From Eubacterium sp. (lineage in GTDB: Bacteria > Bacillota > Clostridia > Lachnospirales > Lachnospiraceae), in NCBI GenBank assembly GCA_017433295.1, contig JAFRHL010000011.1:1-64000 (forward strand): a stretch of 64,000 nt of DNA. Direction: 5' to 3'. How positions within the stretch are numbered: the first letter of the stretch is position 1; each line of letters begins with the position of its first letter. The translations under genes were made by a program, and so were the position numbers. The notes under the pieces were generated by a model. The model was not told where the DNA came from and did not search any database. It was given only the letters and a program-made list of their open reading frames with translations. Below are positions 13,277 through 46,408 of the stretch, one piece after another.

Positions 13277-13398
13277 AGAAAGAGGGGGACCATGTCTGCA
13301 AGTTCCGTTGCTCCTCGGAAATTGAAGCTTTATGTCTGCATATTTTCTTTGATTTCCTGCGGTGCAAAGTCACTTTCAGACATGGTCCCCCTCGTTCT
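13277..13398 (-). repeat. Palindromic repeat family A, copy A1 (minus orientation)
   Basis: Arms at 13277-13303 and 13372-13398 are complementary over 27 bases with two mismatches. They enclose a 68-base core which, read on the minus strand, starts GACTTTGCACCGCAGGAAAT, has 25 variable bases and ends TTTCCGAGGAGCAACGGA. The same core occurs at 13629-13696, 46074-46141 and 46317-46383 with different arms. The variable segment carries ATGTCTGCA (13332-13340, plus strand), also present in the left arm (13292-13300). The copy starts 36 bases after gltD. Small reading frames across it are not protein-like. Confidence 0.85.
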
Positions 13399-13608
13399 TC
13401 GCTGATTATTGTCTGGCAAAGGAAAACCCAGTTCGATTTTTTTGTTTGAGTAAACTGGGAGGAAATATGGTATATTCTTCCTGTTCTTATCTGCCCTGAG
13501 CCGATGATAGGACGAATTCAGAGACAGATATGACCGGGGTTTTGCTTTTCTATCCAGCATTCAGCCGGAAGGGTGCCTCCTTCTACATCAGGTATATAGT
13601 AGTGGGGA
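13399..13608. other. Spacer between the two opposed family A repeats
   Basis: 210 bases with no convincing gene. One hairpin is visible, CCCAGTT near 13428 with AACTGGG near 13452, around a T-rich loop. Short reading frames here begin without a plausible ribosome-binding site and run into the repeats. Confidence 0.5.
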
Positions 13609-13716
13609 ATGGGTATATGTCTGAAAGTGACTTTGCACCGCAGGAAATCGAAAAAAAGCAACCGCCACATAACTTCTGTTTCCGAGGAGGAACGGAACTT
13701 TCAGATATATACCCAT
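13609..13716 (+). repeat. Palindromic repeat family A, copy A2 (plus orientation)
   Basis: Arms at 13609-13628 and 13697-13716 pair over 20 bases; the only exception is a G opposite T, which would still pair in RNA. The 68-base core has the conserved 25-base left block beginning GACTTTGCACCGCAGGAAAT, a 25-base variable block and the right block TTTCCGAGGAGGAACGGA. It faces away from copy A1. The arm sequence (TGGGTATATGT) differs from every other copy, while the innermost CTGAAAGT is shared with A1 and A4. The zinc-ribbon gene on the minus strand ends 59 bases further on. Confidence 0.85.
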
Positions 13717-13774
13717 CATCTACAACTACTTCAAACCTGGGGAGATCTATAGGCCCCTCCAGAACTACTTCGCT

Positions 13775-14290
13775 TTAAAGTTTATTCCCGCATTTGGGAC
13801 AATAGGCAAAGTCCTCGTCCGTTCTATAGCCGCATTGCCCGCACACCTTTACATGGGTATCCGAGGAGCTGCGTCCATCTGGCTTATCCTGTCCAATATA
13901 CCATGCTTCTTCCTGCTGCATATCCTGATCTGCCTTAGAATCATATCCACTATACCGGTCAGACCGATAATCCATATCAGGTCTGTAATTTTGATACCTG
14001 CAGGTATACTGATCTGCGACAGGATCCAGATCCTCCGGCCTTATACTGACAGCCTCACCCCTTAAGATCCGGCGGCCCATATCCTTATCCAGATGCCAGG
14101 TTCTATGACAACAGCTGCTGACTGCATAATAGTGGCGGTTCCATTTGAATACAGGGATAAAAAACAAGGACAATACAGTATATGTCATATAAATGGTGAT
14201 CCTTCCGTACTGGCCGCAGGAGGGACAGATCAGCATCTGGCTGAAATCCAGGTCTTTCCGTCCGGTGTTGATGCCCATAATAAAAAACAT
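13775..14290 (-). CDS. Zinc-ribbon domain protein
   Basis: A 171-residue protein of unknown function. It has CPSCG near residue 22 followed by a hydrophobic stretch (about 32-48), then a second Cys pair partner region, a long polar Tyr/Asp/Arg-rich middle, and a C-terminal zinc ribbon CGQCG...CPKCGNKL (last 25 residues). The two cysteine pairs of the C-terminal ribbon match the short zinc-ribbon domains found in many Clostridia proteins. AGGGAGGA lies 10 bases ahead of the start and inside the end of yaaA, and the start is 3 bases after the yaaA stop, so the two are co-transcribed. A role in DNA, RNA or protein binding cannot be decided from sequence. Confidence 0.75.
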   Translation of the reverse strand: MFFIMGINTGRKDLDFSQMLICPSCGQYGRITIYMTYTVLSLFFIPVFKWNRHYYAVSSCCHRTWHLDKDMGRRILRGEAVSIRPEDLDPVADQYTCRYQNYRPDMDYRSDRYSGYDSKADQDMQQEEAWYIGQDKPDGRSSSDTHVKVCGQCGYRTDEDFAYCPKCGNKL

Positions 14291-14293
14291 GAT

Positions 14294-15085
14294 CTATACT
14301 TCCTCCCTGTAAATATCTTCATCAATCATTTTCTTTTTCAGATCTTCTTTAATATAAACAAAGTATGTATCGGTTGAGAACTCCTTGCTGAATCTGTATC
14401 CATGTCCCCTGAAGGCTTTCAGGTCTTCCGGATCTTCTATTTTATTTTCTGCCATGTACCGGACCATCTCGCCCCGGGCCATTTTGGCATAGACCCCTTT
14501 TTGTACAACTTTTCCTTTAATTAATTCACCAAATACACATGTAATATAAAGATCGTCTCCGGTCAGGTATTTTTCGATACATTTTGAATATTCTTTGGAG
14601 GCCAGATTGATTATTATATGACTCCCATCTGATACCTCCCGGTAGAGACTGTCACCCCATAATTCGTATAAATTCCTGGTACCGTCGATGCGGGCTTTGG
14701 CCTGCATCTCCAGCCGGTAGGGCGTTACGCCATCCATGGGCTTTAACACTCCGTAGAAGCCTGAGAGAATGCGCAGATGCTCCTGCAGATACTCAAACTG
14801 ACCGTCCTCAAAAACAGCAGGCGCCATATACTGATAGGCTATCCCCTCATAGGAGAGGACAGCCGGAACCAGGTGCTTTTTCAGATCCATACATTTGAAT
14901 CTATCATAATTCTCAAGGGCAATCTTATCATTGCAGGCCCAGAGCTTTTTGGCTTCGTCATAGGAAAGACCCTGCATCCACCGCATGATCTGAGCGGTCT
15001 TCTCCAGAAAAACAGGGAGACCGTCCCAGGACATGGCCTCAACCTCGGAGATCATTTTTTTGGCAGGCGATAGTATAATTCTCAT
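14294..15085 (-). CDS. yaaA: YaaA-family (DUF328) peroxide stress protein
   Basis: 263 residues beginning MRIILSPAKKM, the invariant opening of the YaaA/UPF0246 family, and containing SGFYGVLKPMDGVTPYRLEM and FKGHGYRF-like residues near the C-terminus (here AFRGHGYRF). In Escherichia coli YaaA limits intracellular iron and DNA damage under peroxide stress and has a DNA-binding fold. In this anaerobe a role in oxidative stress protection is inferred from family only. It lies between a nitroreductase upstream (13-base gap) and the zinc-ribbon gene downstream, all on the minus strand, suggesting a small stress-related operon. Confidence 0.9.
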   Translation of the reverse strand: MRIILSPAKKMISEVEAMSWDGLPVFLEKTAQIMRWMQGLSYDEAKKLWACNDKIALENYDRFKCMDLKKHLVPAVLSYEGIAYQYMAPAVFEDGQFEYLQEHLRILSGFYGVLKPMDGVTPYRLEMQAKARIDGTRNLYELWGDSLYREVSDGSHIIINLASKEYSKCIEKYLTGDDLYITCVFGELIKGKVVQKGVYAKMARGEMVRYMAENKIEDPEDLKAFRGHGYRFSKEFSTDTYFVYIKEDLKKKMIDEDIYREEV

Positions 15086-15098
15086 TTTATCACCTTGA

Positions 15099-15758
15099 TT
15101 ATTTCACTTTATGACCGGAGGCTGCTTCAAAATGATACTTTACAATACCCAGGTCAACCCTGGTATAAAAACCCTTCCCATCAATCTTTATGGCCGGTTC
15201 TCCATCGATCATGCCTATTTTGAATTTCTGCTGGTTCATGGCAGTGGGAGCCAGCAGGGCGGCCTCAGCCCCGGCCTTGAACCAGTCGGGCATGGTACCC
15301 TTCGTTGCCACGATATCCTCTAAGGATTTACTTTTCCTGGGCACTCCCTGGGTCTGTCCGTAGCCCAGGGCGATCACCATGCATAGCTTTTCCCCTTCTG
15401 GAACGATTCGCTTCACAGCCCGTTTATTAAAGGTCAGGGCGGTCCAGCAGGTGTTCAGTCCCAGCATCTGGGCAATAAGGACCAGCTTTTCTCCATAATA
15501 GCCGCAGTCTTCTTCAAAACTGTCGCTATCCGGCCCCTTCAGCACAATGAAATTATCCACATTCTGGAACTTCCCGTAATGGGCGAGTCTGGATTCAAAA
15601 CCCCGGGGATCATCATAATGGATAGTGATATTAAGACCACTTTCCTTATTGATCTCCTCAACAGCCTCGGACAGCTTCTCTCTTTTCTCATCTTCAATCA
15701 CCTGCATGGTATAGGCTCTGACAGAATGTCTTGCATTAATGGCTTCCTGGATCGTCAT
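15099..15758 (-). CDS. Nitroreductase family protein
   Basis: 219 residues, an FMN-dependent nitroreductase-fold protein. The N-terminus TIQEAINARHSVRAYT carries the Arg/Ser residues that bind FMN phosphate; the middle has GYYGEKLVLIAQMLGLNTCW, typical of the family, and AALLAPTAMNQQKF near the C-terminus. The arrangement resembles the Clostridia nitroreductase branch in which the C-terminal half duplicates the FMN-binding motif. The substrate is unknown. It is the first gene of a minus-strand set with yaaA and the zinc-ribbon gene; the start has CAGGAGGTAATG ahead and a promoter further upstream. Confidence 0.88.
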   Translation of the reverse strand: MTIQEAINARHSVRAYTMQVIEDEKREKLSEAVEEINKESGLNITIHYDDPRGFESRLAHYGKFQNVDNFIVLKGPDSDSFEEDCGYYGEKLVLIAQMLGLNTCWTALTFNKRAVKRIVPEGEKLCMVIALGYGQTQGVPRKSKSLEDIVATKGTMPDWFKAGAEAALLAPTAMNQQKFKIGMIDGEPAIKIDGKGFYTRVDLGIVKYHFEAASGHKVK

Positions 15759-15801
15759 TTCATTACCTCCTGTTACATATATTTGTTATTTTTTTCAAAG
15801 A

Positions 15802-15829
15802 ATTATATCTATAATATACCACATCACAA
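15802..15829 (-). promoter_or_regulatory. Predicted promoter of the nitroreductase-yaaA operon
   Basis: On the minus strand TTGTGA (complement of 15824-15829), a 16-base spacer and TATAAT (complement of 15802-15807). It is divergent from the Uma2-gene promoter that begins 65 bases away. Confidence 0.5.
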
Positions 15830-15893
15830 AGACAATAAAAACAGCTATAGAATAAAATTAAAAGAGTGTAAGCAAGGAAACAATTTACTGGAG

Positions 15894-15922
15894 TTGACAA
15901 TATATATTATAAAATGTATAAT
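15894..15922 (+). promoter_or_regulatory. Near-perfect sigma-A promoter of the Uma2 gene
   Basis: TTGACA at 15894-15899, exactly 17 bases, then TATAAT at 15917-15922: both hexamers match the consensus. It excludes the in-frame ATG at 15914, which lies upstream of the -10 hexamer, and supports the GTG start at 15956. Confidence 0.8.
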
Positions 15923-15955
15923 AATGTTAATTTAGTAAATAGGAGGTGTTTTTCT

Positions 15956-16564
15956 GTGTCTATTTATGATAAAAAAGATGATGAGAATTTAAATTCAATA
16001 CTAAAAGATTCATTGCCGGCTTACAACCTGAACAAAGACACCTATACCATAGAGGATATCTATGCCATGCCGGAGGATATCCGGGTAGAGCTGATCGATG
16101 GGAAATTATTTTATATGACAGCGCCCACCAGGACCCATCAGAGAATTATCGGAGAATTGTATCTGGCGACAGCCAATTTTATCAGGTCCCGCAATGGAGA
16201 TTGTGAGGTATATATTCCGCCTTTTGGTGTGGATCTGATGGAAGATCATTCGGTTTATCTGGAACCGGACCTGACGGTGGTATGCGATATCACCAAGCTG
16301 GATGAGAGGGGCTGTCATGGTGCCCCTGACTGGGTGGTGGAGGTACTTTCCCCCTCCTCCAGGAAGAAGGACAGTGTTATTAAGCTCGGAAAGTACCGGG
16401 AAGCCGGCGTGAGAGAGTACTGGATCGTATATCCAGATAAGAGAATGATACTTGTATATGGATTTCAGGGAGGAGATGAGGACATGATGATGTATTCCTT
16501 TGACGATGAGATTCAGAGTCTGGTATTTCCGGAGCTTGTTGTGAGGTTGGGGGAGTATGTGTAA
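15956..16564 (+). CDS. Uma2 family (DUF820) restriction-endonuclease-fold protein
   Basis: 202 residues from a GTG start; AGGAGGTG at 15941-15948 sits 7 bases ahead and the promoter lies before it. The Uma2/DUF820 domain (about 25-190) has the family opening YTIEDIYAMPEDIRVELIDG, the PD-(D/E)XK core YLEPDL and VVEVLSPSSRKKD, and KYREAGVREYWIVYPDKR. Members are predicted nucleases, abundant in cyanobacteria and scattered in other phyla, mostly of unknown biological role. The gene is alone, under a strong promoter, with repeat B1 immediately downstream. The isolated setting and patchy family distribution suggest acquisition, but base use is not strikingly different from its neighbours. Confidence 0.88.
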   Translation: MSIYDKKDDENLNSILKDSLPAYNLNKDTYTIEDIYAMPEDIRVELIDGKLFYMTAPTRTHQRIIGELYLATANFIRSRNGDCEVYIPPFGVDLMEDHSVYLEPDLTVVCDITKLDERGCHGAPDWVVEVLSPSSRKKDSVIKLGKYREAGVREYWIVYPDKRMILVYGFQGGDEDMMMYSFDDEIQSLVFPELVVRLGEYV

Positions 16565-16611
16565 GGGGTAGTTAGAGATTAGCTTCCGGCGGGTGCGGTC
16601 GTCCAGTGGAC

Positions 16612-16742
16612 GACTCTGCGAAGCAAAACTCGCTTCGCTCAAACAAGCTGCAAAGTCCAAAATGTCTGTCATTTCGATGATAAGCAGTTGCCATTTCTTC
16701 ACACAGTACCGGTCAGATTTCCTCTGGAATACAGACTGATTC
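16612..16742 (+). repeat. Repeat family B, copy B1 (right arm only)
   Basis: Closely matches the apical loop and right half of the full copy at 62533-62747: the apex AACTCGCTTCGCTCA, then AGTCCAAAATGTCTGTCATT, the block around CACACAGTACCGGTCAGA and the end GGAATACAGACTGAT. The left arm is missing beyond GACTCTGC; upstream is an unrelated short palindrome GTCGTCC/GGACGAC. It begins 47 bases after the Uma2 stop. The rest of 16565-16890 holds only the promoter of the next gene. Confidence 0.8.
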
Positions 16743-16797
16743 TATCTGTGTTTGTCAGAAAGTAAACAGGTTTTTGATACTATTAATCTGGTTTCCA

Positions 16798-16826
16798 TTG
16801 AAAAATATCAGAAAATATGCTAATAT
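16798..16826 (+). promoter_or_regulatory. Predicted promoter of the secreted protein gene
   Basis: TTGAAA at 16798-16803, a 17-base spacer and TAATAT at 16821-16826, in a very AT-rich stretch. AAAAGGAGGAG lies just ahead of the ATG at 16891. Confidence 0.45.
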
Positions 16827-16890
16827 AATATAAAAATTCAGAAATATAGGATATTTCATTTAATAATATTGATAAAAAGGAGGAGTAAAA

Positions 16891-18288
16891 ATGAGAAGAA
16901 TGAAATCAGACTATTATTGCAAATTTTCTGACGGTTTTATGTTAGGTATTTTAACTCTCTTATTCTTTTTTGTTATAATACCAGTGAATACTTTGGCTGG
17001 AGGTGACAAAACCCAGTTACCAAAACCAACTTTAAGTCTTGATGGGCCAAGTGGACAAAAAATAACCATCAAAGTGAAAGCATCTTCTGAAAACTTTCAA
17101 AAACTTAAAGAGATAAGTATATTAATAAGAAAAACGGATGTTGAACCAAATATTGATGCGAAGACAGACTCAATAATTAGAGATTATTTAACATCTTTTT
17201 CTTCTGGATATTCCAGAAGCTATTATCTCGATCCTGGTAGTTATGTCATCATTGCGACAGCCATAACAAATGAGCCAAGTAATTATGATAATAGTGAACC
17301 CGTTATGTCTAATTATTTTAACATTGTTTCTTCAGGCGGCTCCAGTGGTTCCGGCGGTTCCGGTGGTTCCAGTGGCTCAGGTGGCTCCGGTTACACACCC
17401 ACTCCCACCAAACTCAGCGATGCAAAGGTACTAATTTACAGTTCTTCGCCGGGAATGGCTACCATAGATATGACAGGCTATGATTATGGTATCGGTGTTG
17501 AGGTTTATAAAGGAGATACACTGGTTGCCAGCCGTCTGCTGGGATATTACGGGAATCGGACGGATTATACACCTATCCCATATCAAGGGAGTACGACATT
17601 CAAGTACCGGGTGTCTACCTATGGAAAGAACTATTCGCCATGGGCTACAGTAACTATTTTCTCGGCAAAACTTGGCAGGCCGTCTCTTTCTGTAACTAAG
17701 ATTTCCGCAACAAGGGCTGGTCTTAAGTGGAGTGGAACAGATGGTGCCACGGGATTCAAGGTATACAAAGGGAATAAACTGATCAAAACCTTAAGTAATA
17801 AGAAGAAATCATATATTGTAAAAGGGAAAGGCGCAGGAAAAGCAAAGTACAGCGTGCAGGCAATTCGCAGCCTCGGCGGTGGTAAATACGCCTCCGGGCC
17901 CAGATCCAAAGCGGTAAAAGGAAAGGCCAATCTCAGAACATACAGCGGAAGCAGCAGCGTCAATTCCGTGAGCTATGGGCATGCTCCATTTCACGTTAAA
18001 AAGGTCACCTTAGTGGGAAATACATACACAGTTACAGGTTATGTGGTAAATAACCGAATTTTTGATTTGAAAAAGTATTCTAAATTTGAGATAACGTTAC
18101 TTTGTAATGGAAAGAAAGTAGCCTATAAGAAATACACTAATATGAACATGAAAGTCAAAGCAAAAAAGTCTAAAAAGGTGGTGCTGAAAATCAAGGGAAA
18201 GGGCGGAGTGGACTTCCGGAATTCAGAGGGAACGACCATCCGCTGGTCAACAAAACCTTATTGGGGACCGGGAATATCGCAATGGTAA
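16891..18288 (+). CDS. Secreted protein with Gly/Ser linker and a fibronectin-III-like region
   Basis: 465 residues. A signal peptide (hydrophobic 17-34, likely cut after TLA at 36) is followed by a beta-rich N-terminal part, a flexible Gly/Ser linker at about 148-167 made of GSGGS-type units, and a C-terminal part. That part includes a stretch near 250-330 (SLSVTKISATRAGLKWSGTD, then FKVYKGNKLIKTL) which resembles a fibronectin type III domain. No LPXTG anchor, membrane segment or catalytic motif is visible, so release or non-covalent wall association is likely. The first 150 codons and the last 80 are clearly more AT-rich than the middle, as if parts had separate histories. Function unknown. 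Confidence 0.75.
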   Translation: MRRMKSDYYCKFSDGFMLGILTLLFFFVIIPVNTLAGGDKTQLPKPTLSLDGPSGQKITIKVKASSENFQKLKEISILIRKTDVEPNIDAKTDSIIRDYLTSFSSGYSRSYYLDPGSYVIIATAITNEPSNYDNSEPVMSNYFNIVSSGGSSGSGGSGGSSGSGGSGYTPTPTKLSDAKVLIYSSSPGMATIDMTGYDYGIGVEVYKGDTLVASRLLGYYGNRTDYTPIPYQGSTTFKYRVSTYGKNYSPWATVTIFSAKLGRPSLSVTKISATRAGLKWSGTDGATGFKVYKGNKLIKTLSNKKKSYIVKGKGAGKAKYSVQAIRSLGGGKYASGPRSKAVKGKANLRTYSGSSSVNSVSYGHAPFHVKKVTLVGNTYTVTGYVVNNRIFDLKKYSKFEITLLCNGKKVAYKKYTNMNMKVKAKKSKKVVLKIKGKGGVDFRNSEGTTIRWSTKPYWGPGISQW

Positions 18289-18312
18289 TAATGGATTGTA
18301 ATAATAAAAGCA

Positions 18313-18352
18313 GGGCAGATAAGAAGGGGATATAGTACAATTCTATCTGCCC
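18313..18352 (+). terminator. Hairpin after the secreted protein gene
   Basis: GGGCAGATA (18313-18321) pairs with TATCTGCCC (18344-18352). It lies 24 bases after the stop; what follows is A-rich rather than T-rich, so termination would be weak. Its 3' arm can also pair with the 5' arm of the next hairpin. Confidence 0.4.
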
Positions 18353-18375
18353 GGACTTAAAATAACAAACATACT

Positions 18376-18416
18376 ATGGCAGATAATTATACTAAATCTG
18401 ATATATTATCTGCCAT
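18376..18416 (+). other. Second hairpin sharing the GGCAGATA motif
   Basis: ATGGCAGATAAT (18376-18387) pairs perfectly with ATTATCTGCCAT (18405-18416). It repeats the GGCAGATA/TATCTGCC helix of the hairpin at 18313-18352, so the two can form either separately or as an alternative pairing across them. A predicted promoter for the next gene lies further downstream, so this belongs to the upstream transcript or is a DNA site. Confidence 0.5.
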
Positions 18417-18488
18417 GACACAAGATTGTATTATTATGGATGGGGTCATATGGAAATCTTTTATCATAGACCGACAACATAAAAATTA

Positions 18489-18517
18489 TTGATTTCACAT
18501 ATGGAACGTAGTACAAT
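18489..18517 (+). promoter_or_regulatory. Predicted promoter of the cysteine-synthase-like gene
   Basis: TTGATT at 18489-18494, a 17-base spacer and TACAAT at 18512-18517; start of transcription expected near 18524, with AGGAGA ahead of the ATG at 18560. Confidence 0.55.
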
Positions 18518-18559
18518 ATTTGGGATTGAACAAAATATTTACAATAGGAGACAGTTGTT

Positions 18560-19489
18560 ATGATTTATAAGAACGTGCTGGAAGCCATGGGTGACACCCC
18601 GATTATTGAACTTGCTCATATGACAGAGCCGGATTCTGCCAGAGTCCTGGTGAAATACGAAGGCCTGAATGTGGGAGGGTCCATTAAGACCAGGACTGCT
18701 TTTAACATGATAAAACATGCCGAAGACCAGGGCCTGATCGATAAGGATACCATTATTGTGGAACCTACCAGTGGCAACCAGGGGATAGGCCTTGCCCTGA
18801 TTGGAGCGGTAAAGGGATACAGAACCATCATCATTATGCCGGATTCCGTCAGCGAGGAGAGACGTAAGCTGGTGCGTCATTATGGTGCAGAGGTAATTCT
18901 GGTCCATGATGCCGGTGACATAGGAAAGTGTATTGACGATTGTCTTCAGAAGGCCCTGAGAATGGCGGCAAAGAATCCTAAAGTATATGTACCCCAGCAG
19001 TTTGCCAACCCGGCCAACGTAGAGATCCAGCGGACTCAGACCGCCGAGGAGATATTAAGACAGGTGGACGGACCTATCCACGGCTTTTGTTCCGGCGTGG
19101 GCACGGGTGGAACCATCACCGGCATCGGCGAGCGGCTGAAAGAGGCGAATCCGGACATGGTGATCTGGGCGGCGGAGCCGGAGAATGCAGCTATTCTGGC
19201 CGGAGGTAATGTTGGCACCCATCTTCAAATGGGGATCGGGGACGGACTGATTCCACCGATTCTGAATCAGGATATCTATGACGATATCCACATTGTTACA
19301 GATGAGGAGGCTATTGAGACGGCAAAGGATTTAGCAAGGCTGGAAGGACTTATGTGCGGAATCTCCAGTGGGACAAATGTAGCCTGCGCTCTGGCTCTGG
19401 CGAAGAAACTGGGGCCGGGTAAAACTGTGATTACAGTTCTTCCGGATACGGCAGAACGTTATTTCAGTACACCATTGTTTGAAGATTAA
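18560..19489 (+). CDS. cysK: Cysteine synthase family PLP enzyme
   Basis: 309 residues, a fold-type II PLP enzyme of the O-acetylserine sulfhydrylase group, expected to make cysteine from O-acetylserine and sulfide. The opening NVLEAMGDTPIIEL is typical. The PLP lysine lies in GGSIKTR (K43), where most CysK proteins have NPAGSVKDR, so the usual Asn-Pro and Asp are replaced. TSGNQG binds the substrate carboxylate and GTGGTITG binds the PLP phosphate; GISSG and PDTAERY complete the site. The altered lysine region leaves room for a related beta-replacement activity. A shikimate-kinase-like gene starts 11 bases later and is probably co-transcribed. Confidence 0.85.
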   Translation: MIYKNVLEAMGDTPIIELAHMTEPDSARVLVKYEGLNVGGSIKTRTAFNMIKHAEDQGLIDKDTIIVEPTSGNQGIGLALIGAVKGYRTIIIMPDSVSEERRKLVRHYGAEVILVHDAGDIGKCIDDCLQKALRMAAKNPKVYVPQQFANPANVEIQRTQTAEEILRQVDGPIHGFCSGVGTGGTITGIGERLKEANPDMVIWAAEPENAAILAGGNVGTHLQMGIGDGLIPPILNQDIYDDIHIVTDEEAIETAKDLARLEGLMCGISSGTNVACALALAKKLGPGKTVITVLPDTAERYFSTPLFED

Positions 19490-19500
19490 ATGGGAATAAG

Positions 19501-20025: not shown

Positions 20026-20027
20026 AT

Positions 20028-21332: not shown

Positions 21333-21392
21333 TTGATTACTCCTGTAATATCCTGTATATCAGGATCCAAAGATTTCTGGAACCACGGTTTT

Positions 21393-21428: not shown

Positions 21429-21446
21429 TTCCTAAATAATCATTAT

Positions 21447-36273: not shown

Positions 36274-36338
36274 TGCATTTTAAGTATCGGTTTTTACAGT
36301 TAATTTGACGTGAATTATACAGAGGGAGAATACCTGTT

Positions 36339-38936: not shown

Positions 38937-40489
38937 ATGCTTTTCTATTATTTAAAGACAGGGTTATCGAGGATTCTCTTACGGATTGCCGTCTGAAGGA
39001 TGACCTGGAGCTTTCCCGTCTCATTGAAAGCATGGCTTTGGAGGAGGGTATGGGCAGACCGGACCCTTATATAAAAGAGACTGTCTCCATGGTTTTTTCC
39101 TCCGGGAATCTCTGCAGGACAAAGGAAGATATCCTGTACCGCCAGGAGATCCTGACAGACTGTATCCATAATCCTGAAAAGATCCGCCGTCTTTATATTC
39201 TTATCAGTAAATGTATAGAAGCAAACAGGGACACTTATTTGTCCATTACCCATAAAAAAGCAAAATTCATGCTGGATGTGTCGGTAAAAACCCTGCTTGC
39301 CATGGAGAAGATCCTAAAAGAAGTTTTCCGGTGCGCCCGGGAAATGCTTCCCCTTTGTCATTCGGAAGGATTATGCAGACTGCTTAATGATCTTCTTCTC
39401 CTGTTTGACCCGGTTCATCTGGACCGCATGAGAAGTTTTGCGGAAGATATGTCAACGAAAAACGGCATCACCTCCGCTGCTACCCTGGGGAAATACTTTA
39501 AGGCGGACGGATTTCATTCCTGCCGGAATCAGAAGGTTGAAAAAAAAGGATTACTTCGCTTTCTGTCCAGAGAGAAAAACTGTGTGGAATTTGATATTGA
39601 CATGAATGATCCGGATGTTTCTCCGGCACTGTCAGCTCTGAGGGACGACATGGTCATTTCATCTGCTTCCGTTTTAGTACAGTCGAAAAATGAACTGTAT
39701 GAGTATTTTAATGAATTAAAAAGGGAACTGTCCTTCTATATAGGATGCCTGAATCTGAAAAATGAACTTGAAAAACTGGGGATCAGTGTGTCCATGCCAA
39801 AGGTCTGCGGTAAGAAGCCGGTGCCGGAAAAGGTCTTGCCGGCGGATTCCGGAGGGATAGCTTTTGTGTCCTTTAAAAATCTGTACAATGTGTCTTTTTC
39901 CCTGCAGGAGAAAAGGGCTTCCGTCAGCAATACCATAGATTGCCCCGGTGAAAAGATCATTGTGATCACCGGATCCAATCAGGGAGGAAAAACCACTTTT
40001 CTAAGAAGCCTGGGTCAGGCTTTATTAATGATGAACAGCGGTATGTTTACAGCCTCCGCTGCCTTTGAAGCCTGCCCCGGAGAGGTGTTCAGTCACTTTA
40101 TCCGGGAAGAAGATGAGAGCTTAAAAAGCGGGAAGCTGGACGAGGAACTGCTGCGAATGAACAACATTGTTGATCATATAACACCGGGCAGCTGGCTCTT
40201 GTTAAATGAATCCTTTGCCTCCACCAATGAAGAAGAAGGCTCCGAAATCGCCATGGAGATCATATCTGCTCTCCATGATCATGGAATTCATATTGTATAC
40301 GTTACCCATTTTTACCATCTGACCCGTTTACTGATGGAAGCGGACCCGGAAGGCGTCCTGTATCTGAATGCCCCCAGAGACGAATCGGGAGGCAGGTCAT
40401 TCAGGCTGGAACCTGGCGAGCCCGTGGTCAGAGGCTACGGGGAAGATCTTTATGAAGAAATCTTTAATATAGAAGGAGTAACATTATGA
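38933..40489 (+). CDS. MutS-like ATPase, second of a tandem pair
   Basis: 518 residues, a diverged relative of the preceding protein. It has no mismatch-recognition domain, Walker A GSNQGGKTT near 347, and a Walker B region LLLNESFASTNEEEG near 423 that again has NE for DE. The shared motif pattern and ATGA overlap on both sides suggest that the two proteins form a heterodimer, as MutS-family ATPases work as dimers with composite sites. It ends with an ATGA overlap into a 143-residue hypothetical gene. Confidence 0.85.
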   Translation: MNAFLLFKDRVIEDSLTDCRLKDDLELSRLIESMALEEGMGRPDPYIKETVSMVFSSGNLCRTKEDILYRQEILTDCIHNPEKIRRLYILISKCIEANRDTYLSITHKKAKFMLDVSVKTLLAMEKILKEVFRCAREMLPLCHSEGLCRLLNDLLLLFDPVHLDRMRSFAEDMSTKNGITSAATLGKYFKADGFHSCRNQKVEKKGLLRFLSREKNCVEFDIDMNDPDVSPALSALRDDMVISSASVLVQSKNELYEYFNELKRELSFYIGCLNLKNELEKLGISVSMPKVCGKKPVPEKVLPADSGGIAFVSFKNLYNVSFSLQEKRASVSNTIDCPGEKIIVITGSNQGGKTTFLRSLGQALLMMNSGMFTASAAFEACPGEVFSHFIREEDESLKSGKLDEELLRMNNIVDHITPGSWLLLNESFASTNEEEGSEIAMEIISALHDHGIHIVYVTHFYHLTRLLMEADPEGVLYLNAPRDESGGRSFRLEPGEPVVRGYGEDLYEEIFNIEGVTL

Positions 40490-40917
40490 ATCATTACGCC
40501 ATCAGCCAATGTGTCAAAGAACTTGGCAAAAAAGACCTGTTCATAACATCTGAACACCGGCAGCTCTTCAGTGACCTGCTGAACTGTTATTCGGAATATC
40601 CTTTTTTCCATAAAGGACTTTGTAAATGCATGTATTTGTCATCATGGGATATAGAACACTATATGATCATGCTGGATATCCTGAATGATATGACCATCGG
40701 AAAAAGTCAGAATACAGATGAAATGTCAGATAACGGTATTACTCTGGAAAGCCAGGCCACAGGTTACGAGCGCTATGTGATGCAGATGTCCGGGGCCTTT
40801 ATAAGGAATGAACCTTATGTGATTCCCGATGAACCCATTGAGGAAGAAGGCTTGAGAATCATGAGGATGGGACTGATGGCGGCCGAAGTAATTGATGAAA
40901 TATTTGAAAAGTACTAG
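40486..40917 (+). CDS. Hypothetical protein coupled to the MutS-like pair
   Basis: 143 residues, no family recognised. Predicted mostly helical, with a Cys-containing stretch FHKGLCKCMYLSSWDIEH near the middle and an acidic C-terminal third (PDEPIEEEGLRIMRMG). Its start overlaps the stop of the second MutS-like gene (ATGA, 40486-40489), so it is made together with that protein and is a candidate partner or regulator. The operon ends here; no strong terminator was identified in the AT-rich 128 bases that follow. Confidence 0.75.
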   Translation: MNHYAISQCVKELGKKDLFITSEHRQLFSDLLNCYSEYPFFHKGLCKCMYLSSWDIEHYMIMLDILNDMTIGKSQNTDEMSDNGITLESQATGYERYVMQMSGAFIRNEPYVIPDEPIEEEGLRIMRMGLMAAEVIDEIFEKY

Positions 40918-41045
40918 GATAATCCGTTGATTATAATATATTTTTAGTACTTTTTTTCGTAATTTGCCCTTTACTAATTTGAATATTTATCTTAAGATAT
41001 AGGTGTTCACATAATTTTCATTTTTTAATGAGGAGGAAATTCAAA

Positions 41046-42287
41046 ATGAAAAAGTTACTCGCATTTCTCCTTGCCGCAACCATGGTTATTTCCCTCTGTG
41101 CCTGCGGCGGTTCCGATAATAAGTCTTCGGAGTCCACAGGTGCTGCAACAGGAACCAAAGCCGTTGATGCAGGCAGCATCAAGATCGGCGCCATCATGGT
41201 AGGCGATGAGAATGAAGGCTACACAGAGGCTCATCTTAAGGGTATCCAGGCCATGAAGGAAGCCCTGGGACTTTCAGATGACCAGGTAATCATCAAGACC
41301 AACATTGGCGAAGACCAGAAGTGTTATGACGAAGCAGTCGACCTGGCAGAGCAGGGTTGCAGCATCATTTTTGCCAACAGCTTCGGCCATGAGGATTATA
41401 TGATCCAGGCAGCCAGTGAGTATCCTGACGTACAGTTCTGTCACGCCACAGGATATCAGGCAGCATCCTCAGGACTTCCCAACATGCACAACTTCTTTAC
41501 CAACGTTTATGAATCCCGTTATGTTTCCGGTGTGGTTGCCGGTCTCAAGTTAAACGAGATGATCGAAAAGGGTGAGGTTACTCCTGATGCATGCAAGATC
41601 GGTTATGTAGGCGCTTACCCCTATGCTGAGGTTGTCAGCGGTTTTACTTCCTTCTTCCTTGGAGTAAGATCAGTATGCGAATCCGCCACCATGGAAGTGA
41701 AGTATACTAACGACTGGGCATCCATGGATCTTGAGAAGGAATGTGCCAAGCAGCTGATCGCTGACGGATGCGTCCTGATCAGCCAGCATGCGGATACCAC
41801 CGGAGCTCCCAGTACCTGTGAAGCAGAAAAGGTTCCCTGCGTAGGCTACAACGTCGATATGGTTCCCACTGCTCCCCACTATGCCCTGACATCTGCTTCC
41901 ATCGACTGGGCTCCTTACTATACTTTCGCAGTACAGAGCATCATCGACGGACAGACAATCCCCACAGACTGGGCACAGGGTTATGCAGGAGATGCTGTAC
42001 GCATCACACCGATCAATGAGGCTGCATGTGCTGAGGGTACCGCTGATAAGGTTGCGGAAGTAGAAGCAGCCATCAAGGATGGTTCTCTTAAAGTATTTGA
42101 TACATCTAAATTTACAGTAGGCGGAAAGACACTGGAAGAGCTGGTTGAAGCAGGAGATGAAACTGCCAAGAACCTCTCTGCACAGATTTCTGACGGATAT
42201 TTCCATGAATCAGATGTGGCTAACGGATTTAACTCCGCTCCCGCGTTTACATTTATTATCGATGGTATTACCTCTGTCACTGAGTAA
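41046..42287 (+). CDS. BMP-family (nucleoside-type) ABC substrate-binding lipoprotein
   Basis: About 413 residues from ATG 41046 (AGGAGG at 41031-41036; ATG 41028 lies before it). The lipoprotein signal ends LCAC with Cys20 as the lipid site, then a linker and a basic membrane protein (BMP/PnrA) domain. Marks are IKIGAIMVGDENEGYTEAH, GCSIIFANSFGHEDYMIQAA and GYNVDMVPTAPHYALTSAS. The related proteins NupN/BmpA and PnrA bind purine nucleosides. It is followed by a hairpin and by the ATPase and two permeases of the same transporter. As the extracellular component it is expected to be made in excess over them. Confidence 0.92.
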   Translation: MKKLLAFLLAATMVISLCACGGSDNKSSESTGAATGTKAVDAGSIKIGAIMVGDENEGYTEAHLKGIQAMKEALGLSDDQVIIKTNIGEDQKCYDEAVDLAEQGCSIIFANSFGHEDYMIQAASEYPDVQFCHATGYQAASSGLPNMHNFFTNVYESRYVSGVVAGLKLNEMIEKGEVTPDACKIGYVGAYPYAEVVSGFTSFFLGVRSVCESATMEVKYTNDWASMDLEKECAKQLIADGCVLISQHADTTGAPSTCEAEKVPCVGYNVDMVPTAPHYALTSASIDWAPYYTFAVQSIIDGQTIPTDWAQGYAGDAVRITPINEAACAEGTADKVAEVEAAIKDGSLKVFDTSKFTVGGKTLEELVEAGDETAKNLSAQISDGYFHESDVANGFNSAPAFTFIIDGITSVTE

Positions 42288-42310
42288 TCTGATATAGACA
42301 GGAACTTTAA

Positions 42311-42337
42311 GGCAGAGTGGCATTTTGCCACTCTGCC
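42311..42337 (+). other. Intercistronic hairpin after the binding-protein gene
   Basis: GGCAGAGTGGCA (42311-42322) and TGCCACTCTGCC (42326-42337) form a perfect 12-bp stem with a TTT loop and no T tract. Such hairpins after binding-protein genes often protect the upstream mRNA, giving more binding protein than permease. Confidence 0.7.
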
Positions 42338-42363
42338 TGCCTATTTATTAAGGAGGAGTAATA

Positions 42364-43905
42364 TTGGATCAGACATATGCCATAGAGCTTAAGAATATTA
42401 CGAAACGTTTTGGCAAAAAAGTCGTGGCAAACAAGTCGGTCAGTCTGAATGTGAAACAAGGAGAGATCCTTTCACTGCTGGGAGAAAACGGAAGCGGAAA
42501 AACTACTTTGATGAATATGATATCCGGTATCTATTTTCCGGATGAAGGCCAGATCTTTGTAAACGGCAAAGAAGTATTTATCAGATCTCCCAAAGATTCC
42601 TTTGATCTGGGGATCGGCATGATCCACCAGCATTTCAAACTGATCGATGTAATGACAGCCGCGGAAAACATCATTCTCGGTCTGCCGGGAAAAGCTGTTC
42701 TCAACATGAAAAAAGTACATCAGGAAATACAGGAGCTGGTGGACCGCTATGGCTTCGATCTTGATCCTGCCCAGAAGATCTATAATATGTCTGTTTCACA
42801 AAAGCAGACTGTAGAGATCGTCAAGGTGCTTTACAGGGGGGCTAACATCCTGATACTTGATGAGCCCACCGCTGTTCTGACCCCCCAGGAGGTTGAGAAG
42901 CTTTTTGATGTCTTAAGAAAGATGAAAGAGGATGGCAGATCCATTATCATCATCACCCATAAGTTAAATGAGGTTCTGGCAATATCGGATCGTGTTTCCA
43001 TCTTAAGGAAGGGACGGTATATCGGAACCCTCAATACATCAGAAGCCACGGTTTCCTCCCTGACGGAGATGATGGTGGGAGAGAAGGTGTCCCTTGACAT
43101 CAACCGCCCCATGCCCCATGATACAAAGCTTCGGCTTTCCGTAAACAATATCTCATGCCCCGGTATGGACCAGTTAAAATCTCTTGACAGTATAACCTTT
43201 GAAGCCTACGGAGGCGAGATCCTGGGTGTGGCCGGCATATCAGGGTCCGGCCAGAAGGAACTGCTTGAGTCCATCGCAGGACTGACAAGGATTTCTGAAG
43301 GAAGTATTATTTTCCACTCCCCGGAGGGCGAAGATATTGAACTTTCGAAATATGATTCGGTTCAGATCAACCGGATGGGCGTCAGGTATTCATTTGTTCC
43401 CGAAGACCGCCTTGGCATGGGCCTTGTAGGTTCCATGGGAATGACCGGCAATATGATGCTGCGGAGCTTCAGGAACGGAAGGGGGCCCTTTACCAGTACG
43501 GCAGAGCCCAGGCAGCTGGCTGAGGAGATCAGGGAGTCCCTGGAAGTAGTAACCCCCAATGTGAATTATCCTGTCCGCCGTCTTTCCGGAGGAAATGTTC
43601 AGAAGATTCTTGTGGGTCGTGAAATATCTTCAGATCCCGCCCTGCTCATGGTGGCATATCCTGTACGGGGACTTGATATTAACTCCTCCTACATGATCTA
43701 TAATCTGCTGAACGAGGAGAAGGAGAAGGGAGTAGCGGTGATCTGCGTGGCCGAAGACCTGGACGTGCTTCTGGAGCTCTGCGACCGCATCCTGGTTCTT
43801 TGCGGCGGCCGGATCAGCGGGATCGTGGACGCCCGGACCACCACAAAAGAGGAAGTGGGATATCTCATGACATCCCATAAAAAGGATCGAAAGGAGGATG
43901 CATAA
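42364..43905 (+). CDS. Sugar/nucleoside-type ABC transporter ATPase with two cassettes
   Basis: 513 residues starting with TTG; AAGGAGGAG at 42350-42358 and the lack of a nearer ATG fix the start. First cassette: GENGSGKTT near 40, VSQKQTVEIVKVL signature and LDEPTAVLTPQE. Second cassette: GISGSGQKE in place of Walker A, LSGGNVQKILVGRE, and an altered Walker B (LLMVAYPVRGLD). This asymmetric double cassette is typical of RbsA/NupA-like transporters of nucleosides and sugars. The permease gene starts immediately after its stop. Confidence 0.93.
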   Translation: MDQTYAIELKNITKRFGKKVVANKSVSLNVKQGEILSLLGENGSGKTTLMNMISGIYFPDEGQIFVNGKEVFIRSPKDSFDLGIGMIHQHFKLIDVMTAAENIILGLPGKAVLNMKKVHQEIQELVDRYGFDLDPAQKIYNMSVSQKQTVEIVKVLYRGANILILDEPTAVLTPQEVEKLFDVLRKMKEDGRSIIIITHKLNEVLAISDRVSILRKGRYIGTLNTSEATVSSLTEMMVGEKVSLDINRPMPHDTKLRLSVNNISCPGMDQLKSLDSITFEAYGGEILGVAGISGSGQKELLESIAGLTRISEGSIIFHSPEGEDIELSKYDSVQINRMGVRYSFVPEDRLGMGLVGSMGMTGNMMLRSFRNGRGPFTSTAEPRQLAEEIRESLEVVTPNVNYPVRRLSGGNVQKILVGREISSDPALLMVAYPVRGLDINSSYMIYNLLNEEKEKGVAVICVAEDLDVLLELCDRILVLCGGRISGIVDARTTTKEEVGYLMTSHKKDRKEDA

Positions 43906-45000
43906 ATGACTGACAATAATTTCAAGGAGCCTTTCGTCCATATAGCCAGAAGGGATGATATGCAGATGTGGAAAAGGTGGCTCGTCCGTCTTATTGCCAT
44001 CTTAATGTCCCTTCTTGTCTGTGCTGCATTTATTGTGGCTATTGTCCATATGAACCCGGTCCAGATCTATCAGGGGATCATCGACGGCGCCATAGGCACC
44101 AACCGGAGACTCTGGGTCACGATCCGTGATTCACTGACCCTTTTGCTTGTGGCAGTGGCCGTTACTCCGGCCTTCAAGATGAGATTCTGGAATATCGGTG
44201 CGGAAGGCCAGATCCTTATGGGCTGCCTGGCTTCATCTGCCCTCATGATCTATGCGGGCAATTCCCTGCCCACCTTTCTGCTGCTGCTTTTGATGTTTGT
44301 CTGCAGTTTCCTAGCCGGAATGATATGGGGAATGATACCTGCTGCCTTTAAATCAATCTGGAATACCAATGAGACTCTGTTTACTCTGATGCTGAATTAT
44401 ATTGCCATGCAGCTGGTAACCTACTGTATCGTATTCTGGGAGAATCCTGCCGGTTCCAATACGGTGGGTATCATCAACGGAGCGACAAAAGCCGGCTGGC
44501 TTCCCAAGCTGTTCGGCCTGGACTACGGCTGGAATCTGCTTATTGTCTTCCTGATCACTCTCTTTATGTACATTTATATGAAGAGAAGCAAACAGGGCTT
44601 TGAGATAGCGGTGGTAGGAGAAAGTGAAGATACCGCCCGCTATGCGGGAATCGATGTCCGCAAGGTAATTATGAGGACAGTGGGACTCTCCGGCGGGATT
44701 GCGGGGATCGCGGGCTTTATTCTGGTCAGCGGCTCTTCCCATACCATATCCAACAGTATTGCGGGAGGCAGAGGCTTTACAGCCATCATTGTTTCCTGGC
44801 TGGCTAAATTTAATGTCTGGGTCATGGCCGTCATTGCCTTCCTCCTGGTCTTCATGCAGCAGGGAGCCATACAGATCGCTACCCAGTACAATTTGAACGA
44901 GAATGCCTCCGATGTTGTCACAGGTATTATCCTCTTCTTCGTAATCGGATGTGAGTTCTTTATCAATTATAAACTTGAGTTCCGCAAAAACCATGAATAA
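43906..45000 (+). CDS. Nucleoside-type ABC permease, first subunit
   Basis: 364 residues, a BPD_transp_2 permease with about eight to ten membrane segments: ITPAFKMRFWNIGAEGQILMG-like region (here TPAFKMRFWNIGAEGQILMG), IWNTNETLFTLMLNYIAMQL and GESEDTARYAGIDVRKV are typical of the NupB/YufP group. It forms the channel with the next gene product. AAAGGAGG lies within the end of the ATPase gene. Confidence 0.92.
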   Translation: MTDNNFKEPFVHIARRDDMQMWKRWLVRLIAILMSLLVCAAFIVAIVHMNPVQIYQGIIDGAIGTNRRLWVTIRDSLTLLLVAVAVTPAFKMRFWNIGAEGQILMGCLASSALMIYAGNSLPTFLLLLLMFVCSFLAGMIWGMIPAAFKSIWNTNETLFTLMLNYIAMQLVTYCIVFWENPAGSNTVGIINGATKAGWLPKLFGLDYGWNLLIVFLITLFMYIYMKRSKQGFEIAVVGESEDTARYAGIDVRKVIMRTVGLSGGIAGIAGFILVSGSSHTISNSIAGGRGFTAIIVSWLAKFNVWVMAVIAFLLVFMQQGAIQIATQYNLNENASDVVTGIILFFVIGCEFFINYKLEFRKNHE

Positions 45001-45015
45001 GGAGGATTGCATAGT

Positions 45016-45996
45016 ATGAGTTTAATAATCACATTTATTCAAAACGCTATTATTCAGGGGATTTGTATGCTTTTCGGAGCCAACGGCGAGATCCTGACGG
45101 AAAAATCCGGCAATCTGAATCTGGGTGTTCCCGGCATGATGTACATGGGAGGAATCGGCGGACTCATGGCGGCCTTCTTCTATGAGAAAGGGAACGAGAA
45201 TCCAAACGGTTTCGTAGGACTGGTCCTGTCATTTATCGCAGCCTTTGTCTTTGCGGCCATCGGCGGACTGATCTTCAGTATCCTGACCATTACCCTAAGG
45301 GCCAACCAGAATGTGGCGGGTCTTGCCCTGACCACCTTTGGTACAGGCCTGGGTAACTTCTTTGGCGGTTCCCTGTCCACCCTGGCAGGCGGTGTGGGAC
45401 AGATTTCCGTGGCCAATACTGGAAGTGCCTATATGGCAAAACTGCCCCTGTTATCAGATATACCGGTGCTGGGAGATATCCTCTTTCATTATGGCTTCCT
45501 TACTTATTTTGCCATTATCCTTACTATAGGACTTTCCTACTTTTTGAACAGGACCCGCTGGGGCCTGAACCTCAAGGCTGTGGGAGAGAATCCGGCTACG
45601 GCAGACGCCGCCGGAATCAATGTCACCTTATATAAATACCTTGCCACCGTCATCGGCGGAGGAATTGCCGGCCTGGGCGGCCTCTATTTCGTAATGGAGT
45701 ATACCGGAGGCACCTGGACAAATAATGGATTCGGAGACAGAGGATGGCTTGCCATCGCCCTGGTAATCTTTGCCCTCTGGAAACCATTAAATGCCATCTG
45801 GGGATCACTGCTTTTCGGTGGATTATATATTCTCTATCTTTACATTCCGGGTCTTGGAAGAAGCATGCAGGAGATCTTCAAGATGCTTCCCTATCTGGTA
45901 ACTGTTATCGTCCTGATTTTAACAAGCCTCAGGAAGAAGAGAGAACAGCAGCCGCCGGCAAGTCTCGGACTGGCTTATTACAGAGAAGACAGGTAG
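45016..45996 (+). CDS. Nucleoside-type ABC permease, second subunit
   Basis: 326 residues from ATG 45016 (AAGGAGG at 44999-45005; TTG 45007 is too close to it). BPD_transp_2 fold: LFGANGEILTEKSGNLNLGV, RANQNVAGLALTTFGTG and NLKAVGENPATADAAGIN are typical of the NupC/YufQ group. It completes the four-gene importer; purine or pyrimidine nucleosides are the most likely cargo by family. The inverted arm of repeat A3 begins at the base after its stop codon. Confidence 0.92.
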   Translation: MSLIITFIQNAIIQGICMLFGANGEILTEKSGNLNLGVPGMMYMGGIGGLMAAFFYEKGNENPNGFVGLVLSFIAAFVFAAIGGLIFSILTITLRANQNVAGLALTTFGTGLGNFFGGSLSTLAGGVGQISVANTGSAYMAKLPLLSDIPVLGDILFHYGFLTYFAIILTIGLSYFLNRTRWGLNLKAVGENPATADAAGINVTLYKYLATVIGGGIAGLGGLYFVMEYTGGTWTNNGFGDRGWLAIALVIFALWKPLNAIWGSLLFGGLYILYLYIPGLGRSMQEIFKMLPYLVTVIVLILTSLRKKREQQPPASLGLAYYREDR

Positions 45997-46192
45997 ATGT
46001 GTTTTTAAAACGGACGCCGGGAGGAGTGGTGATAAAACAGACGCCTGGTGGGGGCATAACTATCTCCCCAGGTTCCGTTCCTCCTCGGAAACCGGAGTGA
46101 AAAGACGGTTTTTTGTCTTTGATTTCCTGCGGTGCAAAGTCACCTGGGGAGATAGTTATGCCCCCTCCCGGCTGGTTGTTTAAGAAACACAT
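45997..46192 (-). repeat. Palindromic repeat family A, copy A3 (minus orientation, extended arms)
   Basis: Inner arms at 46050-46073 and 46142-46165 are complementary over 24 bases with no mismatch. The complementarity resumes outside, through GCCGGGAGG and ATGTGTTT (45997-46004) against AAACACAT (46185-46192). The left arm is about 25 bases longer because it holds two imperfect direct repeats beginning AAAACGGACGCC and AAAACAGACGCC. The 68-base core matches copies A1 and A2 in both conserved blocks. Innermost arm bases are CCCCAGGT instead of the CTGAAAGT of other copies. Confidence 0.85.
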
Positions 46193-46221
46193 GGTAAAGG
46201 CCCGATAGGATGATTTCTAAT

Positions 46222-46265
46222 AAACGGTTATTGGCAAAATATAATAATAATCTGAAACGGTTATT
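46222..46265 (+). repeat. Short direct repeat between copies A3 and A4
   Basis: AAACGGTTATT occurs at 46222-46232 and 46255-46265 (33-base period) in the AT-rich spacer of about 100 bases between the two family A copies. Nothing else was recognised in this spacer. Confidence 0.6.
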
Positions 46266-46291
46266 CATTTTTATATCCGATAAACAGCAAA

Positions 46292-46408
46292 GCAGGCGGA
46301 AAATATCTCTGAAAGTGACTTTGTGACGAAGGAAGCAATATTCTCTTCCCATAAGTCAGATTCCTGTTCCGAGGAACAACGGAACTTGCAGAGATATTTT
46401 CCGCCTGC
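46292..46408 (+). repeat. Palindromic repeat family A, copy A4 (plus orientation)
   Basis: Arms 46292-46316 and 46384-46408 are complementary over 25 bases with one mismatch, at the same position as one in copy A1. The core is more diverged (left block GACTTTGTGACGAAGGAAGC, right block GTTCCGAGGAACAACGGA) and one base shorter. It faces away from A3. The degV stop codon on the minus strand is 35 bases further on. Confidence 0.8.

What the first reader, a model, noticed from the sequence alone, without database searches (positions are those of the whole stretch)
13277..46408. Four-copy repeat with a conserved core and copy-specific complementary arms
Seen directly: copies at 13277-13398, 13609-13716, 45997-46192 and 46292-46408 share a core of 25 conserved + about 25 variable + 18 conserved bases. 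The blocks begin GACTTTGCACCGCAGGAAAT and end TTTCCGAGGAGGAACGGA. Each core is flanked by 20-27 base arms that pair within the copy (0-2 mismatches). Outside the innermost CTGAAAGT, the arm sequences are unrelated between copies. Ordinary transposition gives direct target duplications, not new inverted arms. Either the core drops into the loops of pre-existing hairpins, or the arms are made by fold-back copying, or the whole is a structured RNA with compensatory change in its basal stem. No protein gene travels with it.
Basis: partly seen in the sequence, partly recalled or inferred. Interest (0 to 1): 0.82.

Follow-up and report, generated by a model that had tools for sequence, protein, structure and literature searches.

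The report
Hairpin repeat: fixed core, drifting arms
A DNA repeat that folds into a long hairpin keeps a short conserved core while the rest of its stem changes freely but mostly stays paired; it tends to sit where neighbouring genes end, looks like a new relative of known bacterial palindromic repeats, and what it does is still unproven.

Summary
The window's genome (G000) holds at least 38 copies; 29 more lie in 7 of the other 23 genomes searched in its genus; none was found in 39 other genera (102 scored candidates per genome). Each copy is a hairpin of about 100-150 nt. A core forms fixed mismatched internal loops. The stem on both sides is kept by pairing, not sequence (covariation 0.62 against 0.20 shuffled). 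In four orthologous comparisons (three sites) the core is nearly unchanged (6 of 172 bases) while the arms drift (75 of 240), partly by compensatory change. So variable arms come mainly from drift under pairing, not fold-back copying. The core is nevertheless separable: one orthologous site keeps the same arms without it, another has a plain hairpin instead, and window copy 2 is nested in remnants of another copy's arms. In relatives it lies between convergent genes (19 of 23 sites; 14 of 21 by a cruder rule). It is not in Rfam and does not track Y1/RAYT transposases. Best reading: a REP/REPIN/ERIC-like hairpin family acting at gene 3' ends, probably a bidirectional terminator with a factor-binding core. 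Terminator and factor are inferred.

The parts
13274..13402 (-). Copy 1, whole hairpin (B-type arms). Core blocks on the minus strand: 13351-13373 (GTGACTTTGCACCGCAGGAAATC) and 13302-13321 (TTTCCGAGGAGCAACGGAAC).
   Evidence: model R1 match 13286-13388, 107.4 bits
13600..13724 (+). Copy 2, whole hairpin. Core blocks 13627-13649 and 13679-13698.
   Evidence: R1 match 13612-13714, 111.1 bits
13561..13577 (+). Remnant of an A-type 5' arm (TCAGCCGGAAGGGTGCC) outside copy 2: copy 2 is nested in an older A-type hairpin
   Evidence: by eye; same nesting at G000:C22:57785 and C25:82335
13734..13759 (+). Remnant of the matching A-type 3' arm (AACCTGGGGAGATCTATAGGCCCCTC)
   Evidence: by eye
13403..13560 (.). 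Spacer between copies 1 and 2, parts shared with other divergent pairs (CTGCCCTGAGCCGATGATAGGACGAATTCAGAG...)
13232..13249 (+). Degenerate outer end of the pair (consensus AAATGTTGATTTGTGGGGG, inverted at the far end in better preserved pairs); overlaps the end of the upstream gene
   Evidence: by eye
46040..46175 (-). Copy 3, whole hairpin (A-type arms). Core blocks on the minus strand: 46122-46143 and 46072-46091.
   Evidence: R1 match 46056-46158, 108.8 bits
46288..46412 (+). Copy 4, whole hairpin, diverged core: blocks 46315-46335 (GTGACTTTGTGACGAAGGAAG) and 46366-46385 (GTTCCGAGGAACAACGGAAC)
   Evidence: R1 match 46300-46401, 79 bits

Best explanation
It is a family of dispersed intergenic palindromes found so far only in one genus (REP/REPIN/ERIC-like in kind; I know of no sequence link to those). 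Each unit folds, as RNA or single-stranded DNA, into a long hairpin. The outer and inner helices need only be paired, so they drift, in part by compensatory change. In between lies a fixed set of mismatched internal loops: G.A / A.G, C-G, U.C, U-A, U-A, G-C, then G.A, a bulged C, A.G. Shown: the structure, its covariation, the fixed mismatches, conservation of the core at orthologous sites, a preference in the relatives for places between convergent genes, and many copies in two genomes, in G000 often as divergent pairs. Inferred: the hairpin serves the 3' ends of both flanking genes as a bidirectional terminator or 3'-end stabiliser, and the fixed core is the docking site of an unidentified cellular factor, which may also explain its spread. 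Core loss, or entry into a hairpin, converts core-bearing and plain hairpins into each other.
For: 38 copies in G000 and 29 in 7 of 23 congeners (counted; one of 30 congener matches dropped, see report). Covariation on 26 diverse copies: 88.9% of cells paired against 67.0% shuffled, 28 of 33 pairs with double changes against 20.6, score 0.622 against 0.200 shuffled and at most 0.164 when slid. Orthologous comparisons: core differences 0/43, 4/43, 0/43, 2/43 against arm differences 21/60, 26/60, 2/60, 26/60. Convergent neighbours at 19 of 23 relative sites with both neighbours called, against 4 of 43 adjacent gene pairs in the window. T-richness just beyond the hairpin in relatives: 3.8 of 10 (29 copies) and 4.1 of 10 (27) in the two directions against 2.7 background. 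Orthologous plain hairpin with a T-rich tail. All 8 neighbouring copy pairs in G000 lie head-outward (-,+).
Against: In G000 there is no T-richness beyond the hairpins (2.3 and 2.4 of 10 against 2.9 background); the terminator scan found none at pair 1 and one at pair 2 where shuffles give 0.5, though it only counts loops of 3-8 and could not see the whole hairpin. Only 12 of 38 G000 copies lie between convergent genes by my calls; one pair (C42) lies between divergent genes. A cruder ORF rule gave 14 of 21 convergent in relatives. G-U is not commoner than A-C, so a single transcribed strand is not indicated. At three orthologous comparisons uncompensated changes are numerous (10, 10 and 4 against 5, 5 and 6 compensated; ungapped count); the fourth has 2 uncompensated and none compensated. 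No factor and no expression data.
Confidence: 0.5

Rival explanations
1. The core (about 70 nt with its inner helix) is itself a tiny mobile insert that enters the loop of ordinary terminator hairpins, like the SMR-A elements that enter palindromes in Haloquadratum.
For: Site G017:C280 against G018:C5: the same arms AGAGGGATAGATGAA..TTGACAATATCATCTATCCCTCT with and without the core (71-base gap in the alignment), TTG at both junctions; site G018:C35 against G017:C142: plain hairpin in place of a core hairpin. Window copy 2 and two other copies are nested in A-type arm remnants. Precedent, passages read: SMR-A, about 110 bp, up to 54 copies, no target duplication, inserting within near-terminal palindromes (PMC3119063).
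Against: The difference at G017:C280 is equally a deletion between TTG repeats; the outgroup G015 has an unrelated short terminator there, so the direction is open. In four orthologous comparisons the core is conserved in place while arms drift, unlike a spent insertion. In G000 and G016 the arms are copied together with the core. In G017+G018 the loop inside the core is hardly more alike between sites than shuffled (0.52 against 0.44).
Confidence: 0.2
2. A transcribed structured RNA (regulatory RNA or ribozyme) encoded on one strand.
Against: Promoter-like sites: none at pair 1 (shuffles 1.0), two at pair 2 (shuffles 0.8). Sites in relatives are mostly 3' ends of convergent genes, not leaders.
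Confidence: 0.12
3. REPINs moved by a RAYT/Y1 transposase.
For: Dispersed extragenic palindromes, inverted doublets, compensatory changes in the hairpin (REPIN paper passages). G004, G006, G017 and G018, which hold copies, do have Y1 genes.
Against: Y1_Tnp (PF01797) is not found in G011, G015 and G016, which hold 3, 1 and 8 copies, and G000 has only a partial match at a contig end; no Y1 match lies on a contig with a model match except in the single-contig genome G004, where the nearest is about 128 kb away. The assemblies of G011, G015 and G016 are only 78-84% complete.
Confidence: 0.06
4. No function: the stems stay paired only because template switching at quasi-palindromes copies one arm onto the other.
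For: G-T and A-C mismatches both rare; mixed-arm copies L016, L025 and L029 suggest exchange at the palindrome.
Against: The core mismatches in the middle of the palindrome are not corrected away and are kept at orthologous sites.
Confidence: 0.08
5. Arms are made by fold-back copying at each insertion.
For: Arms differ between non-orthologous sites in G017 and G018.
Against: Orthologous arms are related and drift; copies in G016 share arms.
Confidence: 0.02

Closest known systems
REPINs (inverted REP doublets; PMC3116915, abstract and passages read)
   Same: Dispersed, extragenic, inverted conserved blocks forming a hairpin, with compensatory changes common in the spacer
   Different: Conserved blocks are in the middle of a longer stem with free helices on both sides; no sequence comparison with REPs was run; no link to a Y1/RAYT gene found
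ERIC, NEMIS/Correia, YPAL and other small mobile palindromes (PMC2229807, passages read)
   Same: Imperfect palindromes of 100-170 bp between genes; ERIC and NEMIS are described as acting on mRNA stability or processing; YPAL targets span or adjoin dyad symmetry
   Different: No target duplication at four pairs with recognisable ends; arm sequence is not conserved across species; no sequence comparison with them was run
SMR-A and PATE elements of Haloquadratum (PMC3119063, passages read)
   Same: Transposase-free repeats; SMR-A inserts inside palindromes without target duplication; core-deleted PATEs exist
   Different: Here the hairpins of the relatives lie mostly at gene 3' ends and the core is conserved in place; no IS605-type link found
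Bidirectional intrinsic terminators (general knowledge)
   Same: Long stem between convergent genes, T-rich beyond it in both directions in relatives
   Different: Stem much longer than is usual, conserved mismatched core, no T-rich tails in G000

Membership tests
REPIN / RAYT system | Associated Y1 (RAYT) transposase gene in the genome, near the repeats | tested here: not met
   PF01797 not found in G011, G015 and G016, partial in G000; no Y1 match on a contig with an element outside the single-contig G004. These assemblies are incomplete.
REPIN / RAYT system | Inverted conserved blocks forming a hairpin with compensatory spacer | tested here: met
TIR-type MITE (ERIC, NEMIS and the like) | Terminal inverted repeats | tested here: inconclusive
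   TIR-like AAATGTTGATTTGTGGGGG at both ends of some G000 pairs; I saw none in the relatives' copies, by eye only
TIR-type MITE (ERIC, NEMIS and the like) | Target site duplication | tested here: not met
   none in the 10 bases on either side of four pairs with recognisable ends
Known Rfam RNA family | Match to a covariance model at its threshold | tested here: not met
   window at gathering scores: only a tRNA; five loci at E up to 10: only sub-threshold miRNA, snoRNA, lncRNA and one sRNA models, best MIR4208 over one hairpin at 37.5 bits against a threshold of 140
Intrinsic bidirectional terminator | Hairpin then T-run, between convergent genes | tested here: inconclusive
   position met in most relatives (19 of 23; 14 of 21); T-rich tails in relatives, not in G000; scan weak and not suited to long hairpins
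Intrinsic bidirectional terminator | RNA 3' ends at the site | not testable with these tools
   no transcriptome held
SMR-A-like palindrome-inserting element | Filled and empty palindrome at orthologous sites | tested here: inconclusive
   one site with same arms filled and empty, one with a plain hairpin in place; direction of change not settled

The most novel reading that the evidence does not exclude
A new class of modular 3'-end element: a roughly 70-nt core cassette that enters and leaves the loops of terminator hairpins and, once there, is kept as a recognition site, turning a plain terminator into a controllable one, while the terminator stem is free to change sequence.
Probability: 0.2. 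Interest if true: 0.78.

Novelty: new variant of a known kind. Interest (0 to 1): 0.55.

Why it matters
Bacterial palindromic repeats are common, but how much of their structure is under selection is usually unclear. Here one family combines a fixed mismatched core with drifting, paired arms, orthologous sites with and without the core, and in relatives a preference for places between convergent genes. That makes it possible to test directly whether such a repeat is a parasite, a terminator or a regulated 3' end, by comparing plain and core-bearing versions of the same hairpin.

Tried and rejected
Coding: core blocks read as peptide in some copies, but the loop length varies by non-multiples of three, so rejected. 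Rfam families: none at threshold. Near-exact core in other genera: up to 1 mismatch in 250 family genomes gave one or two hits in each of 21 genomes besides G000; I took these as chance and did not examine them. The two-block pattern in genome contigs gave 14 stretches whose titles name four assemblies (three uncultured Lachnospiraceae MAGs and one Eubacterium sp. MAG; that tool may leave out the window's own genome), and in viral contigs none. Model R2 in 397 family genomes scored only 10 candidates per genome (weak test): G000 only. In 40 family genomes, 102 candidates scored out of 433-1538 each: G000 only, so none in 39 other genera at that depth. RAYT/Y1 link: not supported. Strand test by G-U against A-C: no clear strand (one search used faulty 3' boundaries for some copies and its script stopped with an error, so its numbers are superseded). 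Alignment A3 misplaced one row (L138) and was replaced by A4 without it. Search for further plain hairpins of the GATATTTGAATTGAAAATATC type in 12 genomes: 11 hits, among them the known one in G017 and a similar plain hairpin in G003 and G004; of the other 8 I looked at 6 and they looked like chance. Whether cores are shared between sites more than arms: no clear difference in G017+G018. Papers: the 7 searches that ran listed none that I recognised as on this element; I read passages only of PMC3119063, PMC3116915, PMC2229807 and PMC1525189.
Full report
Observation. Copies 1 and 3 are on the minus strand, copies 2 and 4 on the plus strand, so the window holds two divergent pairs. Copy 4 is a diverged core. 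Every copy folds with one long basal stem on either strand; the tip is branched in the prediction for copy 4 and for one strand of copy 3.

Genome-wide. A pattern search of the window's genome gave 35 core hits with up to 2 mismatches and none for the reversed pattern. A covariance model built from 25 copies gave 56 matches in G000, of which 18 are the opposite strand of another match, leaving 38 distinct copies, and 30 matches in 7 of 23 other genomes of the genus. That search scored 150 candidates per genome, so the counts are lower bounds; two truncated copies seen (C43:23, C19:50277) are not among the 38, and a third hit (C23:61022) is probably chance. I dropped one of the 30 congener matches (G015:C200, a plain 25-bp hairpin without the core, E 0.0025), leaving 29; total 67. 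For base-level counts I also set aside G000:C22:68989 (core motif too degraded), leaving 66. All 8 neighbouring pairs of copies less than 600 bp apart in G000 are head-outward (-,+), with 132-328 bp between the model matches. Spacers and outer ends of several pairs are alike. At four pairs with recognisable ends the unit is 475, 523, 541 and 676 bp long, and the 10 bases on either side show no duplication; the longest complete ORF in the spacers of the 8 pairs is 44 codons.

Structure. On 26 diverse copies with a named structure of 33 pairs: 88.9% of cells paired (shuffled 67.0%), 211 double-change cells (64.2), covariation 0.622 (0.200; slid versions at most 0.164), 28 pairs with double changes (20.6), 0 of 500 shuffles as high for each. 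The structure was written by me from these sequences, which favours it against the slid versions. Column pair 30-81, for example, is C-G in 19, G-C in 4, other in 3. Conserved mismatches lie between: G.A/A.G next to C-G, U.C, U-A, U-A, G-C, and G.A, a bulged C, A.G. In the most distant copies (G011, G004) only the G-N-CUUUG / CAACG-N-A part remains recognisable. Own arms against swapped arms, ungapped, at least 14 of 20 pairs: relatives 19 of 29 against 31 of 812; G000 36 of 37 against 400 of 1332. With gaps allowed, 1962 of 2196 aligned arm positions are Watson-Crick over 66 copies.

RNA or DNA. In the arms G-U is 40 and A-C 59, in the inner helix 7 and 14. A single transcribed reader strand under RNA selection should tolerate G-U better, so either both strands matter (bidirectional terminator), or the other strand, or the structure matters as DNA. 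I leave this open.

Position. With a simple hexamer gene finder trained on the window, 19 of 23 relative copies with both neighbours called lie between convergent genes (3 tandem, 1 divergent; 6 more lack a called neighbour), against 4 of 43 adjacent gene pairs in the window (Fisher p about 3e-9; copies from related genomes are not fully independent). A cruder longest-ORF rule gave 14 of 21. Median distance from the model match to the stop codon at the 19 sites is 32 on the 3' side and 66 on the 5' side (Wilcoxon p 0.051). In G000 12 of 38 lie between convergent genes, 18 between tandem genes and 6 between divergent genes, 2 with a neighbour missing; members of a pair share one region, and the finder missed a likely gene next to window copy 2 (13775-14290). 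So amplification there has spread the element more widely. T-richness next to the hairpin supports a terminator in relatives (3.8 and 4.1 of 10 against 2.7) but not in G000 (2.3 and 2.4 against 2.9).

Orthologous sites. One aligned locus pair of G017 and G018 is 87.5% identical. Flanks of further sites were located, fetched and aligned. (i) Core in both: L132/L133, L147/L158, L159/L169 and L159/L136 (the last two are one site in three genomes). Core differences 0, 4, 0 and 2 of 43; arm differences 21, 26, 2 and 26 of 60; pairs compensated 6, 5, 0, 5 and otherwise changed 4, 10, 2, 10 (ungapped, so indels inflate the latter). L159/L169 match on both sides of the hairpin at 92% and 89%, L169/L136 on both sides at 84% and 82%; L147/L158 match at 83% over 267 bases that include the hairpin and one flank only. 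(ii) G017:C280 has core and arms; G018:C5 has the same arms, no core, and the same tail CTGTTATTTTTTAT; G015 has an unrelated short terminator. (iii) G018:C35 has a core hairpin; G017:C142 has a plain hairpin CCGGAGGATTGGAGATATTTGAATTGAAAATATCTCCAACCCTCCGG there. (iv) G017:C75 has a core hairpin; G018:C54 and G015:C366 have none. So the core is conserved in place where kept, arms drift partly with compensation, and core or whole hairpin can be gained or lost.

Nesting and exchange. Window copy 2 sits inside remnants of an A-type arm pair (13561-13577 and 13734-13759); the same nesting is at G000:C22:57785 and C25:82335. Copies C29:23421, C52:49607 and C56:52740 carry the 5' arm of one B-type variant and the 3' arm of another; the last two look reciprocal. 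Recombination or misassembly could both do this.

Mobility agent. Y1 transposases do not track the element. The ORFs overlapping copies in the window (13530-13778; 46323-46826 among others) look like chance frames.

Distribution. Strict two-block pattern in genome contigs (84,980 species): 14 stretches, whose titles name four assemblies (three uncultured Lachnospiraceae MAGs and one Eubacterium sp. MAG); none in viral contigs. Broad model in 40 family genomes with 102 candidates scored each: only G000.

Known relatives. Closest in kind are REPINs, ERIC/NEMIS/YPAL and SMR-A/PATE; passages of the papers were read. REP sequences are likewise frequent between convergent genes and are targets of IS elements, some at the palindrome axis (PMC1525189 passages). 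None of the 7 paper searches that ran listed this element. I file it as a new variant: it shares anatomy with REPINs and works at a place like a terminator, but fails the RAYT test and the target-duplication test.

Verdict. The finding is sound, its 'copy-specific arms' are explained mainly by drift under pairing and partly by exchange or core gain and loss, and fold-back copying is not needed. The mechanism proposed (bidirectional 3'-end hairpin with a factor-binding core) is inference.

Noticed in passing
window 13561-13577 and 13734-13759: Copy 2 is nested within remnants of an older A-type hairpin; same nesting at two other places in the genome.
   Followed up: partly
G000:C52:49607, C56:52740, C29:23421 (L025, L029, L016): Hairpins with the 5' arm of one B-type variant and the 3' arm of another; two look like reciprocal products, so chromosome rearrangement or misassembly at the repeat is possible.
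   Followed up: no
L133, L154, L217 (G018): A second palindromic repeat, GGGGTCAGACCCC or close to it, recurs near gene ends and beside some of the hairpins in G018.
   Followed up: no
L278 (G003), L279 (G004): Plain 18-bp terminator-like hairpin with the loop GAATTGA, the same loop as the coreless hairpin of G017:C142.
   Followed up: partly
window 47526-47609 (-): A tRNA gene (Rfam RF00005, 55 bits) near the second pair.
   Followed up: no
L145 (G015:C200:380-436): Plain 25-bp hairpin followed by a T-run, picked up weakly by the model; no core.
   Followed up: no
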